From Treponema sp. UBA4326 (GTDB taxonomy: Bacteria; Spirochaetota; Spirochaetia; Treponematales; Treponemataceae), in assembly GCA_002393835.1 (NCBI GenBank), contig DGTW01000051.1, positions 1-12,653 on the forward strand: 12,653 nucleotides of DNA. The letters run 5' to 3'. Below, in pieces: positions 241 to 10,976 of this stretch (positions within the stretch are counted from its first letter, which is position 1; every line of letters begins with the position of its first letter). Both the position numbers and the translations under genes were made by a program. The notes beneath the pieces are model-generated. The model was not told the DNA's origin. It made no database searches and saw only the letters and a program-made list of their open reading frames with translations.

Positions 241-2640
241 CTAATTGAAAAACTCAATCGGCCAGGTCGCATACAGGTTTCCGAAATTGCCGGCATTGAA
301 GAGCTGTACATGGGAGCCAATTGTGTTCTGAACGAGGTATTTGTACAAATCTGCGTAGAAGATTCCGTAAGACCCGTTCTGGTCAGCGGAGTTTATAGTC
401 TCAATCATTTTGTCGGTGAAATTGTGGGTAAAGCGGTTTGAAAGCCAGACTTTAAGCTCCACGCTGTAGAGGTCGGCAAATGATGTTTCGTAGCCGTTGG
501 CAGCTGTAAAGGCAAGAATGCCCTTGTAGGCATCATTCTGGGCAACATTCAGTACGCTGGCCGAATAGCACGGCTCCGCGATAATGAGCATTTTTCGATA
601 ACATTTCTGATTCTGGTTTGATTCAGACTGGCCGGACAAATAGTCAAGCGTGGCTTTCATTCGTTCGGTGGTAAATCCTTCTTTTCCTTTTCCTTGCCAG
701 ACAAACTGACCGAGCGCCCCGTTTCCGTTCCGGTTTGCGCCGTGTCCCGACCAGAACCAGAGGATGTCGGACTGTCCGTCACTATTCAATTGAGTGGGGC
801 TTTCCACGAGACGCGGATGCGTTTGCCTGTCTTCGCTGCGGCTTTCAATCGAAACAGCTTCTCCTTTCATAATATTCACCATGTCGTCTGCCGTCAGCTC
901 AGAAAGCAGGTAGTCAATCTGAATGTCGTCCGTGTACAGGTTTTCACCGTTCAGTCGGGCATAGATTTCACCGGGCTTTTTGTTACGTTTGCTGCCCGCT
1001 ATGTCATCGGCAAGAATCAGGATAATGTTGTCATCATTATATATCTTGGTTTTCTTCTTTAAAAGCTGATAGAGATAGAGCGCATCCGCCTGATGACGGT
1101 AATTTTGCCAACCGTTTGATGCTGCGACGATGACCGCCCAGTGACTCTTTGCCTCTTCATAGTCAACAGATACGCCTTCGCTTTCTTCCTGAAGCTGTTT
1201 CTCAATTTCGTCAATGAGTACGCCCCATTCCCAGCTTGCCCGGTTTCCGGCAGTGCGACCGTTTCCGTCCGAAGATGTGTAGTCAAGTGGCTCAAAACTT
1301 CCCTCTGCTACGGTCCAATGAGTGTAAACCGTGCGAAGAGCGCTTGTGAGAGTTTCTGCGTCAAAATCCAGTAAGCCGGTCGCACCGTTGATATTCACCG
1401 TTTTGTTTGCGTCAATATCTTCAAAGGCGAACATCATGCCGAGCGGCGACAATGCTGATTTTCCGCCACTTCCTGTTCCGGTAAAACTCTTTATCGCTTC
1501 GTTTACCGCATGATTTGAAATAGGCGTGGTCGCTTCGTTTTTGATGCAACGAGCCGCCGCAAAGCCGCACAAAAGCAAGGCATCGTACAAATTCGCTTCG
1601 CCGACAGAAGGCTTTTCATTGAAACGAGCCTCGTACATGACGACAAAACCGCTGGTCGGGTCGGCATAAGGAGCCGTTCCTTCAACGCCTTCTGCAAGCC
1701 CTGCGAATTCTTCTTTCAGAAAATCTGCGGTAAAGGCAGTGTCGGTAAAAAGGAGCCTGGGGGAGCTGTCTCCAAGTCGCTCTCGTTCCTGTAAGATTGC
1801 CTGTGCATCTTTGTATGAAGAAAGTGCGCACAGAACATAATCAGCACCACTTCCGAGCGCTTCGCTGGCAGCGCTTGCAAGAGGAAGGGCTTGGGTTCCT
1901 GCCCCGTAGCTGGTCTCTGCGTTTTCAGAAGAAATATAACGGATATTATTTACAGGCGTAAGTTTCAGCTCGGAGGCGATGTAAGGTCCCCAGTTAAAGA
2001 ATGTCTCGCCGTATAAATCTGCGCTTGAAATGAATGCGACCTTTTTTCCGCCATAAGCCGCCACTTTTGCAAGCAGGGCTTCGGTCTGGGAGATGTCAGT
2101 TTCGGTCAATGCCCACAAGAAAGGGTCGGAATGTGCTGCGGATGCGGCATTCATCGCAAAGGCTCGGATAATGCTTTCGCTTGCGGCGCATGGGGCAATG
2201 AGCGGTTTTTTGTTGATAAAACACGGCTCGGCAAAAACCTGCACATGGTCAGAATAGCGGGGGCCGATAATAGCAAACACATCGTCTCTTTTTGAAAGAC
2301 TTTCTGCCATGGAAGCGAGATTTTCGCTCTCTTCGCTGTACCATTCGAGGTCAAGGATGAATGGCGTGGAAAATTCACTGTCCGTCAGGGCCGTTTTTAG
2401 CGAGGAAAGGTACCAGTCTGCGATACGGTGAAAACGGCTGCTCTGCTCGCCGCTAGAAGGAAGAACCATCGCAACTTTTATCTTTCGCCAGCTGTCTGTG
2501 TCACTTGTTTTGCCTGAGGACGACGAGTCGGAATCATCTGAACAAGAGGCAAGGCAAAGAAACAGGACATAAAACAGTATCAATAAAATATTTTTGGCAG
2601 AAACAGGAACAAAACGATAATTTTTATTTATTTTCTTCAT
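241..2640 (-). CDS. lipoprotein fusing a LivJ-like binding domain to a legumain-like C13 cysteine peptidase
   Basis: This 799-aa protein starts with a lipoprotein signal peptide (lipobox LASC, Cys33), then a Ser/Asp-rich linker. Residues about 55-370 resemble the branched-chain amino-acid type I periplasmic binding fold; FAIIGPRYSDHVQVF and the following KPLIAPCAASES are typical of that family. Residues about 499-799 resemble family C13 peptidases (legumain, GPI8). HWAVIVAASNGWQNYRHQAD at 500-519 is close to the legumain N-terminus, SGHG (His633) fits the catalytic His and AEPCYS (Cys691) the catalytic Cys. N513, R515, H516 and E689 match legumain positions for the active-site Asn and part of the S1 pocket. 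Legumain cleaves after Asn or Asp; the specificity here is unknown. The start is ATG 2640; a GTG at 2646 is in frame two codons earlier. It overlaps the BMP gene by 17 nt, so translational coupling is likely. The protein is probably anchored to a membrane outside the cytoplasm. The domain calls are firm and the biological role is unknown. Confidence 0.88.
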   Translation of the reverse strand: MKKINKNYRFVPVSAKNILLILFYVLFLCLASCSDDSDSSSSGKTSDTDSWRKIKVAMVLPSSGEQSSRFHRIADWYLSSLKTALTDSEFSTPFILDLEWYSEESENLASMAESLSKRDDVFAIIGPRYSDHVQVFAEPCFINKKPLIAPCAASESIIRAFAMNAASAAHSDPFLWALTETDISQTEALLAKVAAYGGKKVAFISSADLYGETFFNWGPYIASELKLTPVNNIRYISSENAETSYGAGTQALPLASAASEALGSGADYVLCALSSYKDAQAILQERERLGDSSPRLLFTDTAFTADFLKEEFAGLAEGVEGTAPYADPTSGFVVMYEARFNEKPSVGEANLYDALLLCGFAAARCIKNEATTPISNHAVNEAIKSFTGTGSGGKSALSPLGMMFAFEDIDANKTVNINGATGLLDFDAETLTSALRTVYTHWTVAEGSFEPLDYTSSDGNGRTAGNRASWEWGVLIDEIEKQLQEESEGVSVDYEEAKSHWAVIVAASNGWQNYRHQADALYLYQLLKKKTKIYNDDNIILILADDIAGSKRNKKPGEIYARLNGENLYTDDIQIDYLLSELTADDMVNIMKGEAVSIESRSEDRQTHPRLVESPTQLNSDGQSDILWFWSGHGANRNGNGALGQFVWQGKGKEGFTTERMKATLDYLSGQSESNQNQKCYRKMLIIAEPCYSASVLNVAQNDAYKGILAFTAANGYETSFADLYSVELKVWLSNRFTHNFTDKMIETINSADQNGSYGIFYADLYKYLVQNTIGSHVQLFNAGNFGNLYATWPIEFFN

Positions 2641-3754
2641 ATTCACGCTCTTTTTCTATGGCTCCTGCTAAGGCTCCCTGCACGACGGCAGAAAGCTTAT
2701 CTTTATATGATTTTGAAATTATCAGTTCTGTGTAGCCGTTTGCAAGGTCAAATTCCTGATGATGGGGAAGTTTGCCCGAAAGCCACTGCTCAATGCATTT
2801 TTGAACGGCACGGTCGATATGCTTTACCACGGAGAAAGGAACTTGCTTCGTGTAGACAGACAAATCGGAGTCCATGCCCACTGTATAGAAGGACTTTTCT
2901 CCTTTTTCTCGGTTGTAGCGCAAAAGTCCGTGGACACTTCCGCCACAAACAGGAAAATAAAGGTCAAAGGGATTTAATTTCTGGGCAAAGAGCGCCAGAG
3001 CATAAGAGAGGTCGGCACTGTCAAAGCCATCTTTGTCATGATCGTTATTAAGGGAAATCGCCGCAAAATCCAGCTCCTCAAATTTTGAAACTGAATCCGA
3101 CCATTCCGTAAAATTATAGTCATAGACTTTTTCGTTCCAGGCAGATTCGCTGCCAGCGATAAAGCCCTTCAACGCATCCATGACGCTTTGAGTGCTTTCG
3201 TTAGCAAGAATGGCAAGAATCCGGGCATTTTCCCTTCCCGCAAGCAGCGTCTTTGAAGCCAGCCCAGCAAGGTAACTCGCACCATAGAGTGGCATATATG
3301 CTGTATTTACAGCAGGAAATTCAGTTTCTTTGGATTCAAAAAGCATGTATGAAATCGTATCGGGCTTTTCAGAGAGATATGGTGAAAAAAATTCAAGGTA
3401 GCCCTCATCACCAAAAAGGAAAAACACCGGGAGCTTGTAGGTTTTCGTTAGCTCATAACAGCGCGGAATGTATTCATCAACAAGGCCTTTTGCCTCATCC
3501 CAGTTTTTGGGGCAGATATCATATACCAAGAGATTGTTTTTTAGGGCAGCCTTCTGAACGCCCGAGCAAAAAGAATCGACATAGGAATTGTCGCCCAAGC
3601 CGTTGGGCGGATAAAAAGCAATAAGTCCGCCTTTTGAAGCGACGCTCTCAACAGAGGGATTTTCGTCATCGGATTCGTTCTTGCAGGAAAAGAGAGAAAA
3701 TGAAAAAATCGTAAAAAAAGTCGCAAAAAAGGTAAACCTGAAAAAGTTTTTCAT
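2624..3754 (-). CDS. BMP/PnrA-family substrate-binding lipoprotein
   Basis: A 376-aa lipoprotein: a Phe-rich hydrophobic signal ends in LFSC (Cys24) and is followed by an acidic linker. The mature part matches the basic membrane protein family (PnrA/TmpC/Med-like type I binding fold). GLGDNSYVDSFCSGVQKAA at 52-70 corresponds to the family's N-terminal strand-helix, and GMDSDLSV (293-300) followed by SVVKHIDRAVQKCI (308-321) to the C-terminal signature. Known members bind purine nucleosides and feed ABC importers; the ligand here cannot be read off. An Asp-rich stretch at 238-248 (DHDKDGFDSAD) looks like a calcium-type loop and is unusual for the family. The start is ATG 3754 because a Lys precedes the hydrophobic core there; the in-frame TTG at 3796 would add 14 residues. 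The Shine-Dalgarno is weak. The 3' end overlaps the peptidase-fusion gene. No permease or ATPase lies nearby, so it may act as a sensor or serve a distant transporter. Confidence 0.85.
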   Translation of the reverse strand: MKNFFRFTFFATFFTIFSFSLFSCKNESDDENPSVESVASKGGLIAFYPPNGLGDNSYVDSFCSGVQKAALKNNLLVYDICPKNWDEAKGLVDEYIPRCYELTKTYKLPVFFLFGDEGYLEFFSPYLSEKPDTISYMLFESKETEFPAVNTAYMPLYGASYLAGLASKTLLAGRENARILAILANESTQSVMDALKGFIAGSESAWNEKVYDYNFTEWSDSVSKFEELDFAAISLNNDHDKDGFDSADLSYALALFAQKLNPFDLYFPVCGGSVHGLLRYNREKGEKSFYTVGMDSDLSVYTKQVPFSVVKHIDRAVQKCIEQWLSGKLPHHQEFDLANGYTELIISKSYKDKLSAVVQGALAGAIEKEREYEENK

Positions 3755-3790
3755 AAACAAACACAAGAATTCATAAAAGAAAGAAGACAA

Positions 3791-3818
3791 GTTCAAATGC
3801 CCGGACAGACATTTGAAC
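3791..3818. terminator. inverted repeat between the MACPF and BMP genes, possible weak terminator or regulatory hairpin
   Basis: A perfect 9-bp inverted repeat, GTTCAAATG (3791-3799) with CATTTGAAC (3810-3818), encloses a ten-base loop. It lies after the MACPF stop codon at 3876 and before the BMP start at 3754. On the minus strand it is followed by a pyrimidine-rich stretch (TTGTCTTCTTTCTTTT), which fits a weak intrinsic terminator. The stem is AT-rich, so an operator or an mRNA processing hairpin is also possible. Confidence 0.45.
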
Positions 3819-3875
3819 CTGCCATTGTCCTTGTCACGAGGTCAAGCAAAAAAATGACACGTCAAGTCCTTTCAG

Positions 3876-6575
3876 CTATTTACAAGGCTCACATAGAATT
3901 ACACGGTAGCACGGGCCTTGTTCAGACCGAAGCTCTGATGCTGACGCCCTGCGATACCAGATTAATCCAACTTTGTAGTCGTGAGCCATATCTTTATAGT
4001 TAGTATGGCTTACAGAACCTGAATTAGGAGAAATGGTGATTTTAGACAGATTGCCCCATGTATTGCTGCGCATTGTCGCGGGATCGGTGGTGTTGTTGTC
4101 ATCCCAACAAGCCAGTACGCAATTCTCTGCCTGGTCAAAGTAGTATCGTTCCGTTACTGCTCCGTTGTTATTGAAGCCGATATATCCGGTTTTGGTAAGG
4201 TTAAGGCCGAGCACACCGCCCTTCATGAACATGGCAGCCACCGTACCGCCTGGTTTTCTAGAAAGATTGTTCAAGCGCGAGACAAGACCGGTGATGGCAC
4301 TTGTTTTTGGAAGAGAATATTTTCCATTAACAAAATGAGTGCCATTGTAATCCCATTTTTCTGTGAGCAGCCAGACAGGATAATAGTAGATGTTTTGATA
4401 TTCTGATGGCAAGTTTTCCCAACTATCATCAGATGTGGTTTTTTGGTACTTATTGGCGATTAATTGTTGCTGACTGCCATCGACATTAGCAAAGGCTGTG
4501 CTGCCATTCTCATAACCAGTACCCATATAATAATCGCGCAAATACAAGTTGTTTTCAATTTTTACGACATTGTATGTACCGTTGGCTGCCCCAAAATTAA
4601 GTTTGTAGTCTTCGGAAGATACCTCAGAGCTTTTTTCTTCTATCTTGTTCTGGTTTTCTTCGGAGAGATATGAAGGCACATAGGTAGTAAGCGTAGTACC
4701 GGTAAGATAGAATGTCGTATACTGGTCATAGTCGAGGGATGATTTTTCGGTCAAGACAACCTGCCCGCCATTCCAGCCAACGGAATGCGGTTTATGGAGT
4801 ATATCACCTGCATACAAACCCTGATTCCAGAACACTTTTCCGTTGTTATCTGCAGGATAGAGGACTTTGACACGGCTGTTTATATTAAGCTGCGGAATAT
4901 ACTCCCAGCACAATTTTGCAACCAAATTGTCTCCGTAGTAGATGTCTTTTACAAAAGAACCGTTCTCATCGAAAGCAATCTTTGTGGTGTCGATTTTTGC
5001 AGGAAGCGTGTTCACATGACGTGCCTGACCTTCAATCGGGTAATCCACTTTCAGCTGACTTTCAAAATAGTCTTCCATTGCTTTATAGCGCTCTTCGAAT
5101 CCGTCCAACTCATCGTCAAGAAGCTCATACAAAGGAATGAGGTTGTCAGGACTTATAAAATCTACGAATACGCAGTTGTTGGCTTCGCTCAATGTAGCCT
5201 GCCACTCAGCGAATTTGTCACTGCGGCTGCTTTCTGAGGCCGTTCTTTCGTTAAGCAAAGAGCCAAATCCCGATATCGCATCTTCGCTTCCTCCCTTCAC
5301 ATCTGAACTAAAGTTGAATCTGTTGCCTTCGCTTGTGAGCGTCTTCTTGTAGCTTCCCTCTACAGTAGTTGACAGTTTGAAAAGACCATCATAGCCTGCC
5401 TTAAGCATTCCTCCTGCCTCAAATGTACTTTCCATCTTCTCGGTATTTGCTTCCATGTCCAGATGAACCTTACCGCCAAGGATTCCGCCTTTTACGACAT
5501 GAGTACCATACTGTTTTACAAGCTTCTTGAAGACATCCGCTGTATTATTCTTAAATCGCGGGTTTATACCGTTAATGGCTTTATAAGCGGCATCCGTCAT
5601 AAATTCTTTTTTGGTAAGCGTCATATCATCAGTATTAATAACCGCAGTCAGTTTATTAACTTTAATGTCAGCCCATGCATACTGATAGTTTGTCGTGTCG
5701 TGGCTTGTCCACTCTGTATGAGCATCAATTTCACCACTGAAATCAGCGATGTCAAAACTACCTTCAACAGTATGTTTGAGTGAGGCTTCAAGTTCTGCAA
5801 GGTTTGAACCGGATGCCTCACGATAAGAAAGCTTAGTGGAGTCAGACGTGTAGACAATCTTAACGACATCGCCTTCATAGGTAATACCGTCATCGCTCAT
5901 AAGTTCCGTAACCTTAAAAATAGGACTCTTACGGCATCTTGCTGAAGCATAGCCAAGACGGTTGTTGTAGCCGTAGCCGATGAACTGCTTCATGGCAACT
6001 GATTCACTCGGTTCATCAGCATTTGCCGCCGCAGCTTTCTGCTCCAGGTTTATTGTCTTTGTCGTCTCCGTACCTGTCGCACCATATTTTATGGTGAGGG
6101 TTGCGCTGTGAGTGTTTGCGTTATCGTTCTGGTACACATACAGATTGACTTTTTTTGTGCCGTTTCCTTTCTGGTCAAGGCTTCCCGCTTCTTCGCTTAT
6201 GTAGCCAAGCTGATAAATTTCTTCAGTATCCTCGGTCTGACCAGTAGTTTCGTCAGTTTCAGTGTAGAAATCATTCTCAGCATAGGCAATTTCTGCGCCC
6301 CAAGAGTCACCGTTGTTTATCGGAAGGACAAATTCAACCTTGTAAGCGTAATTTTCAAGCTTCAGGTCTTCCGTATCTCCGAATGTGCTTACATCCTTCG
6401 TTACGGATGTGATTGTAGGGGTAGTAGTTTCTGTGGTGTCAGCTCCCGGAGTTGTTTTTGGCGTACTGTCACTTTTTGGCGAGGTCTCATCATCGCCATT
6501 TGAGCAGCCTGAGAAAATCAGTGCCGAAGCAAGCAGCAATGATGTCAGACATGATAAGATTTTTGTCTTTTTCAT
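3876..6575 (-). CDS. MACPF-domain (perforin-like) lipoprotein
   Basis: An 899-aa lipoprotein: signal MKKTKILSCLTSLLLASALI, lipobox FSGC (Cys24), then a Thr/Ser/Pro-rich linker to about 55. Residues about 57-180 form a beta-rich region ending TKTINLEQKA that resembles a BACON/Ig-like repeat (tentative). MQ-type MACPF sequence begins near GYGYNNRLGYAS (200-211). The defining signature YGTHVVKGGILGGK is at 356-369, fitting the family pattern (Y/F)GTH-x(n)-GG. Residues about 520-899 form a C-terminal region with WNGGQVV, YYPVWLL and GLIWYRR motifs, possibly for target binding. MACPF proteins oligomerise into membrane pores; bacterial members include the Bacteroidales antimicrobial proteins (BSAPs) and also proteins with no known pore activity. 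The start is ATG 6575, five bases after AAGGAGG; the open frame to 6821 lacks this. It is the last gene of a four-gene unit, 76 nt after the preceding lipoprotein gene, and its signal-peptide DNA is nearly the same as that gene's. The domain is confident; target and activity are unknown. Confidence 0.87.
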   Translation of the reverse strand: MKKTKILSCLTSLLLASALIFSGCSNGDDETSPKSDSTPKTTPGADTTETTTPTITSVTKDVSTFGDTEDLKLENYAYKVEFVLPINNGDSWGAEIAYAENDFYTETDETTGQTEDTEEIYQLGYISEEAGSLDQKGNGTKKVNLYVYQNDNANTHSATLTIKYGATGTETTKTINLEQKAAAANADEPSESVAMKQFIGYGYNNRLGYASARCRKSPIFKVTELMSDDGITYEGDVVKIVYTSDSTKLSYREASGSNLAELEASLKHTVEGSFDIADFSGEIDAHTEWTSHDTTNYQYAWADIKVNKLTAVINTDDMTLTKKEFMTDAAYKAINGINPRFKNNTADVFKKLVKQYGTHVVKGGILGGKVHLDMEANTEKMESTFEAGGMLKAGYDGLFKLSTTVEGSYKKTLTSEGNRFNFSSDVKGGSEDAISGFGSLLNERTASESSRSDKFAEWQATLSEANNCVFVDFISPDNLIPLYELLDDELDGFEERYKAMEDYFESQLKVDYPIEGQARHVNTLPAKIDTTKIAFDENGSFVKDIYYGDNLVAKLCWEYIPQLNINSRVKVLYPADNNGKVFWNQGLYAGDILHKPHSVGWNGGQVVLTEKSSLDYDQYTTFYLTGTTLTTYVPSYLSEENQNKIEEKSSEVSSEDYKLNFGAANGTYNVVKIENNLYLRDYYMGTGYENGSTAFANVDGSQQQLIANKYQKTTSDDSWENLPSEYQNIYYYPVWLLTEKWDYNGTHFVNGKYSLPKTSAITGLVSRLNNLSRKPGGTVAAMFMKGGVLGLNLTKTGYIGFNNNGAVTERYYFDQAENCVLACWDDNNTTDPATMRSNTWGNLSKITISPNSGSVSHTNYKDMAHDYKVGLIWYRRASASELRSEQGPCYRVILCEPCK

Positions 6576-6651: not shown

Positions 6652-8472
6652 CTATTCGTTTTCCTCTTGCCATGAAGCCAAGGCATCATCAATATAGCGG
6701 CTGAAAGAGTTTTTGGTACTCCAGTAATCAAAATATGTATCACCATCGGAAAGCTCTGTATCTTCTCTCTGAACATACACGCTCGTATACGAAGATGAAT
6801 ATGGCTTCTGAGGCTGTCCATTTTTTTCTTTATTGTCTTTAATCATGAGCTCTGGAGAGACAATGACATGATAGTTAGCCTCATTATCCTTGTAGCGGTA
6901 TCTGCTATTTGCAGGTTTCTGCCACGTTGACCTTGAGAATTCATAAAAATTCAAAGTCTTGTCCGAAACAGGATATCCATGAAGATAGTGAGCAAAGTCA
7001 TAATAGAACTCACTTGCATAGATAGGCGCCTCCTGCTTGGTCATATATCCTCTTTCGGCAAGCAGAGCAAGAACTTGTGTCGGACTTGCCCCTATTGATG
7101 TGAGATATACTTCATCGTAAGAATCAGTAAGCGACAGAAGAAATTCTTTGTTTACATACTTGCTGTATGTGATTGCTGGGACCTTAATGCGAGTAAAAAG
7201 ATATTCCGTTACAGAACCGTTTTTGCAGTAACCGTAAAAAAATGGCTGGGTCGTTTTTAGCTGGGCGGCCTTTTTAAAGACAGTAGTATCGACACTGCCA
7301 TCCTTGGGCAGGTTGTTCAAGCTGAGGCCTCGGTTTGAATCATCTTTAGGAGAGCCATAAGCAAAGGCAAACATGACATTTTTGTAGTCGTCCCGATTTT
7401 TAGTGTCGTTGCCAGGTCCATCCTTGCCATCTGACAGCATGTGCAGCGCCATTAAATCTATTCCTTTTTTCTGCAATGCTTCATATACATGTCTTGCATT
7501 TCCAAATCCAGAAGCATTGTCCGTTGCTGCTTTTTCCCATGCAGCCACATTGACCAGCGAACTGAATGTATGGAACGCAGCTTTTGCGGTTTTCAGGCTC
7601 ATCAGGTTTTTTGCGTATGTCCAGTTATGCTCGGATTTAATATATTTACTTTTGCCGTCATCCTTTTGCCCCGCATAATGATAGACACTGACGGTTTTTG
7701 TGGTCTCATTAATGATGTTTTTCGCACTGTCGGTCACAGAGTTGAGGCAGAGCCAATAGCTTTTATCCTTAAACATTGGGCCTCCAGCCGGGCGAACGCA
7801 TATCCAACAGGTACTGTCTTTGTTGCGTCTGATAACATCACCTGCATGGTAGTAAGGCGTACCGGTGAATTTGTTTGTAGCCGTAAGTTCCTTTGAATCT
7901 GCAGAAATAAAGCGAAGCTGGGTCAGTTCAGGCATTACAGGAAGATTAACATCAATTGTTGCATATAAATCTTCTTCGCCGCTTATCTTTGTAAAAGTGA
8001 GCGTGCCTAGCCCGGAATATGACCAGCTGTACTTGCCTGCGGTAAGACTGGACTCCGTAATGCTTTCGCCGATAAGGCCAGAAAAATAATCAAGCGCATC
8101 GGTAATGCTTGCCGCCGCTATTGAGTACACGGTTGGTTTTGTGGAATCAAGAACAAAGCCCTCATCGCAGGTAAAAGTCATTGTATTCCAGCCGCCAGGA
8201 AGAACTTCGACACCGGAAACAGTCCCGTCTTCGTCATCAGCGACTTTGTTCTCATCGTACTGCGTCAAGTCAGTGAGCGAGCGAAGCACGGTGAATGCCG
8301 CATCGTCAACTGTGGCGAAAACTGCGTTGTTTGCCTCATCTTCTTGTTCAGAACCTGGATTTGAACCATGGGTAGTTGATTTGTCATCATCGTCATTTGA
8401 ACAGCCTGAAAAAATCAATGCCGAAGCAAGCAACAGTGATACCAGAAAAGATAAGTATCTTGTCTTTTTCAT
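6652..8472 (-). CDS. large surface-type lipoprotein of unknown family, paralogue of the gene at 9091-10878
   Basis: A 606-aa lipoprotein: signal MKKTRYLSFLVSLLLASALI, lipobox FSGC (Cys24), then SNDDDDKS and a Gly/Ser/Glu linker. I do not recognise a named domain. Conserved blocks shared with the paralogue are residues 55-77 (VDDAAFTVLRSLTDL plus eight more), SWSYSGLGTLTFTK (149-162), LTQLRFIS (183-190), HAGDVIRRNKDSTCWICVRP (209-228), NLMSLKTAKAAFHTF (289-303), FAFAYGSPK (368-376), IVSPELMIKDN (537-547) and YFDYWST (580-586). Trp, Tyr and Gly richness suggests a beta-rich extracellular fold, possibly for ligand or glycan binding, but that is inference. Start ATG 8472 has AAAGGAGG four bases before it. 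It lies 27 nt after the membrane-protein gene and 76 nt before the MACPF gene, so co-transcription is likely. The 5' region and signal peptide match those of the MACPF gene at DNA level, while the body matches the other lipoprotein. Confidence 0.8.
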   Translation of the reverse strand: MKKTRYLSFLVSLLLASALIFSGCSNDDDDKSTTHGSNPGSEQEDEANNAVFATVDDAAFTVLRSLTDLTQYDENKVADDEDGTVSGVEVLPGGWNTMTFTCDEGFVLDSTKPTVYSIAAASITDALDYFSGLIGESITESSLTAGKYSWSYSGLGTLTFTKISGEEDLYATIDVNLPVMPELTQLRFISADSKELTATNKFTGTPYYHAGDVIRRNKDSTCWICVRPAGGPMFKDKSYWLCLNSVTDSAKNIINETTKTVSVYHYAGQKDDGKSKYIKSEHNWTYAKNLMSLKTAKAAFHTFSSLVNVAAWEKAATDNASGFGNARHVYEALQKKGIDLMALHMLSDGKDGPGNDTKNRDDYKNVMFAFAYGSPKDDSNRGLSLNNLPKDGSVDTTVFKKAAQLKTTQPFFYGYCKNGSVTEYLFTRIKVPAITYSKYVNKEFLLSLTDSYDEVYLTSIGASPTQVLALLAERGYMTKQEAPIYASEFYYDFAHYLHGYPVSDKTLNFYEFSRSTWQKPANSRYRYKDNEANYHVIVSPELMIKDNKEKNGQPQKPYSSSYTSVYVQREDTELSDGDTYFDYWSTKNSFSRYIDDALASWQEENE

Positions 8473-8499: not shown

Positions 8500-9048
8500 T
8501 TAAACATTCTCTTTCCTAAAGCAAGCCACAAGCCCGTAGCTGAGTGTCGGTCTAATCCAGATTTCAACAAGCAGATAACCAGTGTATTCATTGTTTGGTT
8601 CAAGGCAGATGTCTATGTTGTAGAGTGTTGCAATGACCATATCAATGAGACAAATAATCCACAAATTGCCCTTGGAATAGCTCTTCCACTCTTTACGGGC
8701 ATAGAAGTATGTGAGCATGACCAGAAGCAGTACTGACAAGGTAAGGCAGGACAATCGGAGAGGATAAATTGCCAGAGGGGGCGCAAAGATAATGTCACGC
8801 AGGAATACCGTAATTCCCAGACACACCGAACACCAGTAATTGAACCGATGGGCGCCGAGAATGTTGAAGAAATACAGTCCTATCATTACCAGACAGGCAA
8901 TGTAGAAGGCATTCAGCACCAGTTCCGGCCATGTGTTGCTAATTCCCAAATGAGTTATGCCATAGAGCATGATACCCACTGAGAGAAGAGCGGCTAAGAT
9001 AGTAATAACGATATCTCTGATTTGTGATTTCTTGAATCTTGTACTCAT
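8500..9048 (-). CDS. small multi-pass membrane protein of unknown function
   Basis: A 182-aa protein with a basic N-terminus (MSTRFKKSQIRD) and about five hydrophobic stretches, roughly 13-31, 42-62, 72-90, 98-116 and 128-146, with a possible sixth near 155-176. The last two are separated by an acidic segment (LEPNNEY). No catalytic or transport motif is visible and I do not recognise the family. It is the only non-lipoprotein in the unit, lying 42 nt after one large lipoprotein gene and 27 nt before its paralogue. A role as an inner-membrane partner, an export helper or a self-protection (immunity) protein for the MACPF product can be imagined, but nothing in the sequence proves one. The upstream GGGG before ATG 9048 is only a weak Shine-Dalgarno, suggesting lower translation than its neighbours. 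Confidence 0.75.
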   Translation of the reverse strand: MSTRFKKSQIRDIVITILAALLSVGIMLYGITHLGISNTWPELVLNAFYIACLVMIGLYFFNILGAHRFNYWCSVCLGITVFLRDIIFAPPLAIYPLRLSCLTLSVLLLVMLTYFYARKEWKSYSKGNLWIICLIDMVIATLYNIDICLEPNNEYTGYLLVEIWIRPTLSYGLVACFRKENV

Positions 9049-9090: not shown

Positions 9091-10878
9091 TTAGTCATTT
9101 TCTTTTTTCCAATCGACTTTTTTGGCGTCGACATAACGCTCGCAGTTGTCGAAAGTGCTCCAGTAATCGAAGTAAAGGGTATATCCTTGCCAATAAATTT
9201 CAGTATAGTCTTTCTCTTTAACAGGAGACGGAGGGACTGACTGATCTGCCTTGCCGTTGTTGTCTTTAATAACAAGTTCTGGGGAAATAATGACATGCCT
9301 ATCTAAGTATGTAGGGTAATAGCGTGCGTAGACAGGTTGGTGTTTAATGAATTTTACAGGTCCGGGTGCGTTCGTATTATCGCAATTTTCTAGCCTATGA
9401 AGAAAGTTATTGAAGTCATACAGAAATTTTTTTGCCTTTTCGTCATTAGTATCGCCTTCTGTTAGCGGGAAGCAAGTATCGAAGGTACTTCCGTTCATTC
9501 GTGAGAAAACAACATCAAAAGAATCAGTAAGCGAGAGTAAAAAACTTACAGCTTTGTTAGTATACTGAAAATTTTCGACTGTATTTACTGTTGAAATTAC
9601 TTCCTTGAACTTTCCGTTTTCTACATATCCGTCGCATGATATAAATGGCTGAACATAGTTTACCTGTCCCACAGTCTTATAGATATCCTCATCAAATCCG
9701 TGTGTGGGTTCAATTATTACTTTGAGATTTCTGTTAGCATCCTTTTTGGGACTTCCATAAGCAAAGGCAAACATGGCAGATCTGAGATTCTGAAAATCGT
9801 CTGACATTTTACCATTATCATCCGCATTCAAGTGCAATCCTATCAAATCAATTCCTCTGTCCTTCAACCCTGTATATGCCATCTTGGCTCCTTCACATCC
9901 AGATAAGTTCCATGCATTGCTGTCTACAAGCAAGCCAAAAGTATGGTAAGCGGCTTTAGCAGTTTTAAGAGACATCAGATTCTTTGCATAGACCCATGTT
10001 TGGATGCACTCGTAATAGGCATAATCGTCCTCACTAGCATTATGCCAAATGGTATACTTCTTCGTTTCGCTCTTGATTGTGGTTTTTCCGGCATTTTTTC
10101 CTGTAGATTTGTTGTCAAAAGCATCGAGAGCAATCCAGTAGCTCTTGTCTTTTTTGTAAGGACCACCCGAAGGTCGGACGCAAATCCAATAGGTGTTGTC
10201 CTTATTTCGCCTGATTACATCGCCCGCATGGAAGTAAGGTCTGCCACTGTAGCTGTTCGTTGAGGTAAGTTCTGGTGAATCTTTGGAAATAAACCTGAGC
10301 TGGGTTAAGTCGGGCATTACATCGAGGGCTACATCTACCGTGGCAAACAAATTTTCGGTGCCAGTTACTTTTGTGAATTTTAAAGAGCCAAGTCCGCTGT
10401 AGGACCATTTGTAAGTACCGTTTGTAAGGCTGGCTTCTGAAACAGGCTCTCCAATAACACCTGAGAAGAATTCAAGGGCATCGTCAAGATTGTTTACTGG
10501 AATCGAGCGTACTTTGGGTTTTGAGGTGTCAAAAACAAAGCCTTCGTCACATGTAAAGATCTTTGTCGCCCAGTTGTCAGGAAGGGTTTCAACTCCAGAA
10601 ACAGAGTTGTCATCTTCATTGACAACTTTGTTCTCATCGTACTGGGTTAAATCTGTGAGCGAGCGGAGTACGGTGAATGCCGCATCGTCAACGGAATCAA
10701 AAGTGGCGGGTTGGGTTATTAGGTCTGTTTGACCGGAACCAGGCTGTGATTTCGGGTCAGTTGATTTATCGTCGTCGTCATTTGAACAGCCCGTTAAAGG
10801 AAGGATAAATATAAGGGAAATTAATACGAATACTTTACTTATGTGTAGTAGGGGGGGGGTAATCCAAATCTTATTCAT
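9091..10878 (-). CDS. large surface-type lipoprotein of unknown family with a poly-C tract in its 5' coding end
   Basis: A 595-aa lipoprotein with an unusual signal: MNKIWITPPLLHISK precedes the hydrophobic core VFVLISLIFILPLTGC (lipobox LTGC, Cys31), followed by SNDDDDKS. The mature part is collinear with the 606-aa protein at 6652-8472, sharing an identical 23-residue stretch at 63-85, plus LTQLRFIS (191-198), HAGDVIRRNKD (217-227), WICVRPSGGP (231-240), KNLMSLKTAKAAYHTF (299-314), AFAYGSPK (371-378), ISPELVIKDN (531-540) and YFDYWST (569-575). No named domain is recognised. Start ATG 10878 has AAGGAGG five bases before it, and no other ATG, GTG or TTG in frame lies before the lipobox. Codons 7-10 contain nine consecutive Cs (10851-10859 on the plus strand), and a change of one base would stop translation within about six codons. 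It is the first gene of the unit, so such a switch could also have polar effects on the genes behind it. A surface location is inferred. Confidence 0.82.
   Translation of the reverse strand: MNKIWITPPLLHISKVFVLISLIFILPLTGCSNDDDDKSTDPKSQPGSGQTDLITQPATFDSVDDAAFTVLRSLTDLTQYDENKVVNEDDNSVSGVETLPDNWATKIFTCDEGFVFDTSKPKVRSIPVNNLDDALEFFSGVIGEPVSEASLTNGTYKWSYSGLGSLKFTKVTGTENLFATVDVALDVMPDLTQLRFISKDSPELTSTNSYSGRPYFHAGDVIRRNKDNTYWICVRPSGGPYKKDKSYWIALDAFDNKSTGKNAGKTTIKSETKKYTIWHNASEDDYAYYECIQTWVYAKNLMSLKTAKAAYHTFGLLVDSNAWNLSGCEGAKMAYTGLKDRGIDLIGLHLNADDNGKMSDDFQNLRSAMFAFAYGSPKKDANRNLKVIIEPTHGFDEDIYKTVGQVNYVQPFISCDGYVENGKFKEVISTVNTVENFQYTNKAVSFLLSLTDSFDVVFSRMNGSTFDTCFPLTEGDTNDEKAKKFLYDFNNFLHRLENCDNTNAPGPVKFIKHQPVYARYYPTYLDRHVIISPELVIKDNNGKADQSVPPSPVKEKDYTEIYWQGYTLYFDYWSTFDNCERYVDAKKVDWKKEND
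10851..10859 (-). repeat. nine-base homopolymer (C9 in the coding strand), candidate slipped-strand switch
   Basis: Nine consecutive Gs on the plus strand read as ACC CCC CCC CTA in codons 7-10 of the lipoprotein gene. With eight Cs the frame reads TAC TAC ACA TAA. With ten it reads CCT ACT ACA CAT AAG TAA. Either change ends translation before the lipobox. Homopolymeric G/C tracts in 5' coding ends or promoters are established phase-variation elements in bacteria, including the tpr genes of Treponema pallidum. Confidence 0.7.
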
Positions 10879-10883
10879 AGAAT

Positions 10884-10890
10884 CCTCCTT
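10884..10890 (-). promoter_or_regulatory. ribosome binding site of the poly-C lipoprotein gene
   Basis: AAGGAGG on the minus strand, five bases before ATG 10878. It confirms that translation starts upstream of the poly-C tract, so the tract is translated. Confidence 0.85.
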
Positions 10891-10948: not shown

Positions 10949-10976
10949 ATTGTAACACAAGATTTGAGGAATTCAA
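10949..10976 (-). promoter_or_regulatory. candidate sigma-70-type promoter for the four-gene unit
   Basis: On the minus strand, TTGAAT (10976-10971) and TACAAT (10954-10949) are separated by 16 bases, a fair match to a -35/-10 pair. Transcription would begin near 10940 and give a leader of about 60 nt. That leader holds a short 6-bp inverted repeat (AGAGTT at 10913-10918 with AACTCT at 10925-10930), too weak to call a regulator. Confidence 0.5.

What the first reader, a model, noticed from the sequence alone, without database searches (positions are those of the whole stretch)
10841..10878. C9 tract in the 5' coding end of the operon's first lipoprotein: likely phase-variation switch
Nine Cs sit in codons 7-10, after a strong start site and before the signal-peptide core. 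By reading the frames, C8 gives TAA four codons after the tract and C10 gives TAA six codons after it, and no alternative start exists before the lipobox. That is the arrangement of an ON/OFF contingency locus. The paralogue at 6652-8472 lacks the tract and the extra N-terminal residues, so the tract is specific to this copy.
Basis: partly seen in the sequence, partly recalled or inferred. Interest (0 to 1): 0.78.

Follow-up and report, generated by a model that had tools for sequence, protein, structure and literature searches.

The report
Probable on/off switch in a lipoprotein
A run of nine identical bases at the start of a surface-lipoprotein gene in a Treponema-like bacterium sits where gaining or losing one base would stop the protein, and similar runs cluster at lipoprotein genes in related genomes, so it is probably a random on/off switch of a well-known type, although switching itself was not seen.

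Summary
In detail: G9 on + (C9 in the gene) at 10851-10859, codons 7-10 of a 595-aa lipoprotein, behind a strong ribosome site. C10 ends after 14 codons with no rescue. No length variation was observed. The best case for switching is comparative. Of 8 C/G runs of 9 or more in this genome, 3 lie at lipoprotein 5' ends (2.6% expected); in six relatives 24 of 95 (3.5% expected), in a second set 10 of 30. Of 18 classifiable coding-class cases 7 are in frame and 11 out of frame as assembled. Part of the signal is a second class, runs between -35 and -10 of lipoprotein promoters. Against: the closest homologue (96%) has Phe at codon 8, so its run is broken, and no other family copy examined at DNA level has such a run. 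In the narrow coding zone the second set is not enriched (2 of 30). Verdict: probable translational phase-variation switch, a new member of a known kind (T. pallidum poly-G loci, Neisseria pilC). Less expected is a lipoprotein-centred set of such runs across this treponeme genus.

The parts
10851..10859 (-). C9 run (G9 on +), codons 7-10 of the lipoprotein gene: the proposed slippage switch
9091..10878 (-). 595-aa lipoprotein gene, in frame as assembled; no Pfam match at E<=0.001; Cys31 invariant in 36 aligned family members
10884..10890 (-). AAGGAGG ribosome-binding site, 5 nt before the ATG
10786..10797 (-). lipobox L-T-G-C (Cys31), 71 nt from run start to the Cys codon
10865..10867 (-). TTG that is in frame with the lipobox at C8; poorly spaced from the ribosome site
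10949..10976 (-). promoter-like site TTGAAT-16-TACAAT (weak: 2 sites found in the region against 1.1 in shuffles)
8500..9048 (-). 182-aa hydrophobic, membrane-type protein (by eye; no Pfam match), next in the presumed operon (42-nt gap)
6652..8472 (-). 606-aa lipoprotein paralogue (51% identical) without the run
3876..6575 (-). MACPF-domain lipoprotein (start inferred at MKKTKILS; the listed ORF runs to 6821)
2624..3796 (-). Bmp/PnrA-type lipoprotein
241..2646 (-). lipoprotein with periplasmic-binding and C13 peptidase domains

Best explanation
The C9 run is a translational phase-variation switch. Slipped-strand mispairing during replication changes the run by one base. C9 (and C6, C12) gives the full lipoprotein; C10 stops translation after 14 codons; C8 stops the main frame after 12 codons and at best allows weak expression from a badly spaced TTG. 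Cells in a population would thus differ in displaying this lipoprotein, and premature termination in the first gene could also lower the five genes downstream. Shown: run, frames, start site, lipobox, clustering of such runs at lipoprotein 5' ends in the genus. Inferred: slippage at this locus, surface display, polarity and the benefit (bet-hedging against host immunity, phage or competitors).
For: Frame analysis. Runs of 9 or more at lipoprotein 5' ends (zone -120..+60 nt of the lipobox Cys): own 3 of 8 (p 9e-4), six relatives 24 of 95 (p 2e-14), the latter split as 9 of 17 in G005 and 15 of 78 in the other five; second set 10 of 30 (p 4e-8). In the random samples, runs of 4-8 in the zone are 10 of 420 (own) and 20 of 698 (relatives). 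Of 18 classifiable coding-class runs 7 are in and 11 out of frame (read off), close to the third in frame expected if length drifts freely (p 0.62). Improbable codon choice, about 0.5%. In T. pallidum a promoter run of mostly 9 G varies from 7 to 11 within isolates (PMC7864442, passages), and a run inside the TP0127 ORF is listed as phase-variable (PMC5015957, passages).
Against: No length variant was seen. The closest homologue P0001 (96%, same length) has Phe at codon 8, so its run is broken; in its first 41 residues that is the only difference. No other family copy examined at DNA level has such a run. Enrichment in the narrower, mostly coding zone (-75..+60) is strong in the own genome (3 of 8) and in G005 (8 of 17, one gene family), weaker in the other five (8 of 78, p 0.001), and not significant in the second set (2 of 30, p 0.19). 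Only 3 of the 18 coding-class runs are C runs, and most lie closer to the lipobox, so a C run in the n-region is atypical. MutS is matched in the own genome (660 of 840 positions, 638.8 bits against a cut-off of 641.7), so no repair defect is evident.
Confidence: 0.7

Rival explanations
1. Chance homopolymer: Thr, Pro and Leu codon choices happened to line up; the run slips at background rate, with no selected switching.
For: Run is broken in the 96% homologue and absent from the other family copies examined; the genome-wide number of runs of 9 or more is not clearly above the decay trend.
Against: 3 of 8 runs of this genome lie at lipoprotein 5' ends, the genus shows the same tendency, and C9 is an unlikely spelling of TPPL.
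Confidence: 0.2
2. A recently lost or decaying switch: the lineage had a phase-variable run and strains are locking the gene ON by substitutions, as in P0001.
For: P0001 differs from the window in residues 1-41 only inside the run; P0013 (47%) keeps an ITPPL N-terminus.
Against: DNA of P0001 and P0013 was not available; the direction of change is unknown.
Confidence: 0.08
3. Assembly artefact in run length, so that the true length (and frame) is not known.
For: Draft assembly of 373 contigs, 74% complete.
Against: At C9 the gene is open for 595 codons and matches a 96% homologue of the same length end to end.
Confidence: 0.02

Closest known systems
Treponema pallidum poly-G loci (tprE/G/J, tprL, tp0126, TP0127)
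   Same: G/C homopolymers of about 7-11 linked to envelope-protein genes; TP0127 has the run in the ORF (PMC5015957, passages; PMC7864442, passages).
   Different: The cases described in those passages with expression data are promoter runs of outer-membrane proteins; here the run is in the signal-peptide coding region of a lipoprotein and length variation is not shown.
Neisseria pilC
   Same: Homopolymer (table entry G 9-20, genic) inside the reading frame of a surface protein, ON/OFF by frameshift (PMC5953494, passages). That the pilC run lies in the signal-peptide region is recalled, not from a call.
   Different: Unrelated protein and organism; switching is established there, not here.
Spacer-type phase-variable promoters (tp0126, Neisseria porA)
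   Same: A second class of runs found in relatives sits between -35-like and -10-like hexamers of lipoprotein genes, as described for tp0126 and porA (PMC7864442, passages).
   Different: Does not apply to the window's own run, which is inside the gene.

Membership tests
Homopolymer contingency (phase-variable) locus, translational type | Uninterrupted homopolymer of about 8 or more inside the reading frame near its 5' end | tested here: met
   C9 at nt 20-28 of the gene
Homopolymer contingency (phase-variable) locus, translational type | One-base change abolishes the product | tested here: met
   C8 and C10 stop after 12 and 14 codons; C8 leaves a weak TTG start
Homopolymer contingency (phase-variable) locus, translational type | Run length varies between cells or strains | tested here: inconclusive
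   Only one close homologue, same length but substituted at codon 8; no reads; two genome-contig scans gave no relative
Homopolymer contingency (phase-variable) locus, translational type | Reversible ON/OFF expression | not testable with these tools
   needs culture or reporter
Bacterial lipoprotein (signal peptidase II type) | n-region, hydrophobic core, lipobox Cys | tested here: met
   MNKIW...HISKVFVLISLIFILPLTGC; Cys31 invariant in 36 sequences; judged by motif, no signal-peptide predictor was run
Spacer-type phase-variable promoter | Run between -35 and -10 | tested here: not met
   Window run lies in the ORF, and the spacer scan of 103 runs listed no site for it

The most novel reading that the evidence does not exclude
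This treponeme genus carries a lipoprotein-centred phasome with two switch designs: runs inside lipoprotein signal-peptide regions (translational) and runs in the spacer of strong promoters driving lipoprotein genes (transcriptional). Within the window's genome, copies of one operon type (family lipoproteins, MACPF lipoprotein, Bmp lipoprotein, C13 peptidase) carry G/C runs in different members, so the displayed set could vary combinatorially.
Probability: 0.55. Interest if true: 0.65.

Novelty: new member of a known kind. Interest (0 to 1): 0.5.

Why it matters
In the papers seen, phase variation in treponemes is studied in the syphilis agent; the one wider genomic comparison found counted homopolymers of 7 or more per genome and reported the rumen species T. 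ruminis to have the fewest (PMC8049484, passages), without linking them to lipoproteins in the passages seen. If switching is real, uncultured treponemes outside the syphilis group diversify their surface in the same way, and this can be tested directly in existing metagenome reads.

Tried and rejected

Rows set aside: of 96 runs listed, one was dropped because its flanks are identical to another's, leaving 95. Of 27 zone hits (28 rows), 9 were left out of the in/out-of-frame count: six promoter-class, two with withheld (N) bases, one not a credible lipoprotein; one of the seven in-frame cases rests on a GTG start with a weak ribosome site. The six relatives were picked because they have many runs or share the gene family; their random sample comes from five of them. 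The second set is 30 of 100 runs in 26 genomes; three same-genus genomes (G002, G012, G027) had no run and were not included. Relatives of other genera were counted but their runs were not placed.

Full report
The run is real. On the minus strand, gene 9091-10878 begins ATGAATAAGATTTGGATTA then C9 then TACTACACATAAG; the run spans the last two bases of codon 7 to the first of codon 10. AAGGAGG lies 5 nt upstream of the ATG. The product has a short n-region, a hydrophobic core and LTGC, with the Cys invariant in 36 aligned sequences. C8 and C10 stop after 12 and 14 codons, C6 and C12 stay open. So C8 may be low rather than off.

The window is a whole contig of a 2.98-Mb, 373-contig draft. The gene is first of six on one strand with gaps of 42, 27, 76 and 79 nt and one overlap, 298 nt from a glycoside-hydrolase-94 gene on the same strand (distances by subtraction). 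That the six form an operon is inferred.

The genome holds 8 runs of C/G of 9 or more (overlapping hits merged). Placement: this gene; a 225-codon open frame for a lipoprotein on C200, run 46 nt after its lipobox Cys, in frame; a MACPF-domain lipoprotein on C370 whose signal-peptide start and lipobox frame do not agree at the run; an FkbM-type methyltransferase on C300; a binding-protein/AraC regulator on C324; the last codons of a histidine-kinase gene on C136; two without a clear gene (C346, C373). With a fixed lipobox rule (motif, 80 open codons after it, polar residues), 3 of 8 runs fall within -120..+60 nt of a lipobox Cys, against 2.6% of bases in 15 sampled contigs (151,425 bases). In six same-genus genomes it is 24 of 95 against 3.5% of 366,847 bases sampled from five of them, and 15 of 78 without G005. 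G005 contributes 9 of 17, which all look like one lipoprotein family, so these are not independent. In a second set of 30 runs from 26 other genomes (30 of the 100 runs listed), 10 of 30 fall in the zone.

Two designs are mixed in that number. In the narrower zone -75..+60 nt, which is mostly coding, counts are own 3 of 8, G005 8 of 17, other five 8 of 78, second set 2 of 30, the last not significant. Much of the rest is a promoter class: 19 of 103 runs lie between a TTGACA-like and a TATAAT-like hexamer at spacing 15-19, against 508 of 20,000 random positions (p 2e-11), and 12 of the 19 are followed by a lipoprotein-like N-terminus (by eye); 5 of 30 in the second set (p 9e-4). The rule allows up to 3 mismatches in 12, so some of these will be chance.

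If runs in coding 5' ends switch freely, about a third should be in frame. Of 18 classifiable cases 7 are in frame and 11 out. Runs held in place by selection for an intact gene would be nearly all in frame. Decayed genes or assembly errors could also give out-of-frame cases.

For this locus alone the evidence is thinner. Of 15 family proteins read in full, only P0001 and P0013 share the window's N-terminus; P0001 (96%, 595 aa) has Phe at codon 8, so its run is interrupted; P0013 (47%) keeps ITPPL; P0004 is called from the lipobox. At DNA level, 13 other copies with a readable start, of 15 examined, lack the run, and none of 15 further, partly overlapping loci from the genus has any G/C run of 7 or more. 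The run is therefore young or local to this lineage, as contingency runs often are (general knowledge).

Known parallels: in T. pallidum a promoter run of mostly 9 G varies from 7 to 11 within isolates and its length alters reporter expression (PMC7864442, passages), and TP0127 is listed with a run in the ORF (PMC5015957, passages). Neisseria pilC has a G 9-20 run in the reading frame (PMC5953494, passages). This is a likely new member of that kind. A comparison of homopolymer counts across treponemes found the rumen species T. ruminis the poorest in them (PMC8049484, passages); the genomes searched here vary widely, from 0 to 35 overlapping C9 hits among 35 same-genus relatives. The lipoprotein clustering of the long runs is the more interesting result.

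Noticed in passing
L033 (G000 contig C370) 3415-3423: MACPF-domain lipoprotein with a G9 run in its signal-peptide region; as assembled the start and the lipobox are in different frames, i.e. the gene reads as off or broken.
   Followed up: partly
L029 (G000 contig C200) 533-542: Lipoprotein of about 221 aa with C10 46 nt after the lipobox Cys, in frame; no Pfam match.
   Followed up: partly
L037 (G000 contig C108) 1413-1419: Bmp-type lipoprotein with a G7 run about 11 residues after the lipobox Cys, in another copy of the operon type.
   Followed up: partly
L099, L124, L126, L130, L136, L141-L143, L145, L147, L157: G/C runs in the spacer between TTGACA and a TATAAT-like hexamer upstream of lipoprotein-like genes in related genomes.
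   Followed up: partly
L100, L103, L107, L109-L111 (G005): A lipoprotein family (CENFL or CQNFL at the lipobox) in G005 with a run in the signal-peptide region of many copies, some in frame, some not.
   Followed up: partly
window 241-6575; L038, L039: Set of MACPF lipoprotein, family lipoprotein(s), Bmp lipoprotein and C13 peptidase lipoprotein also present side by side in G020 and G023.
   Followed up: partly
L030 (G000 contig C300) 1160-1169: G10 run in mid-gene of an FkbM-type methyltransferase, in frame; another possible switch.
   Followed up: no
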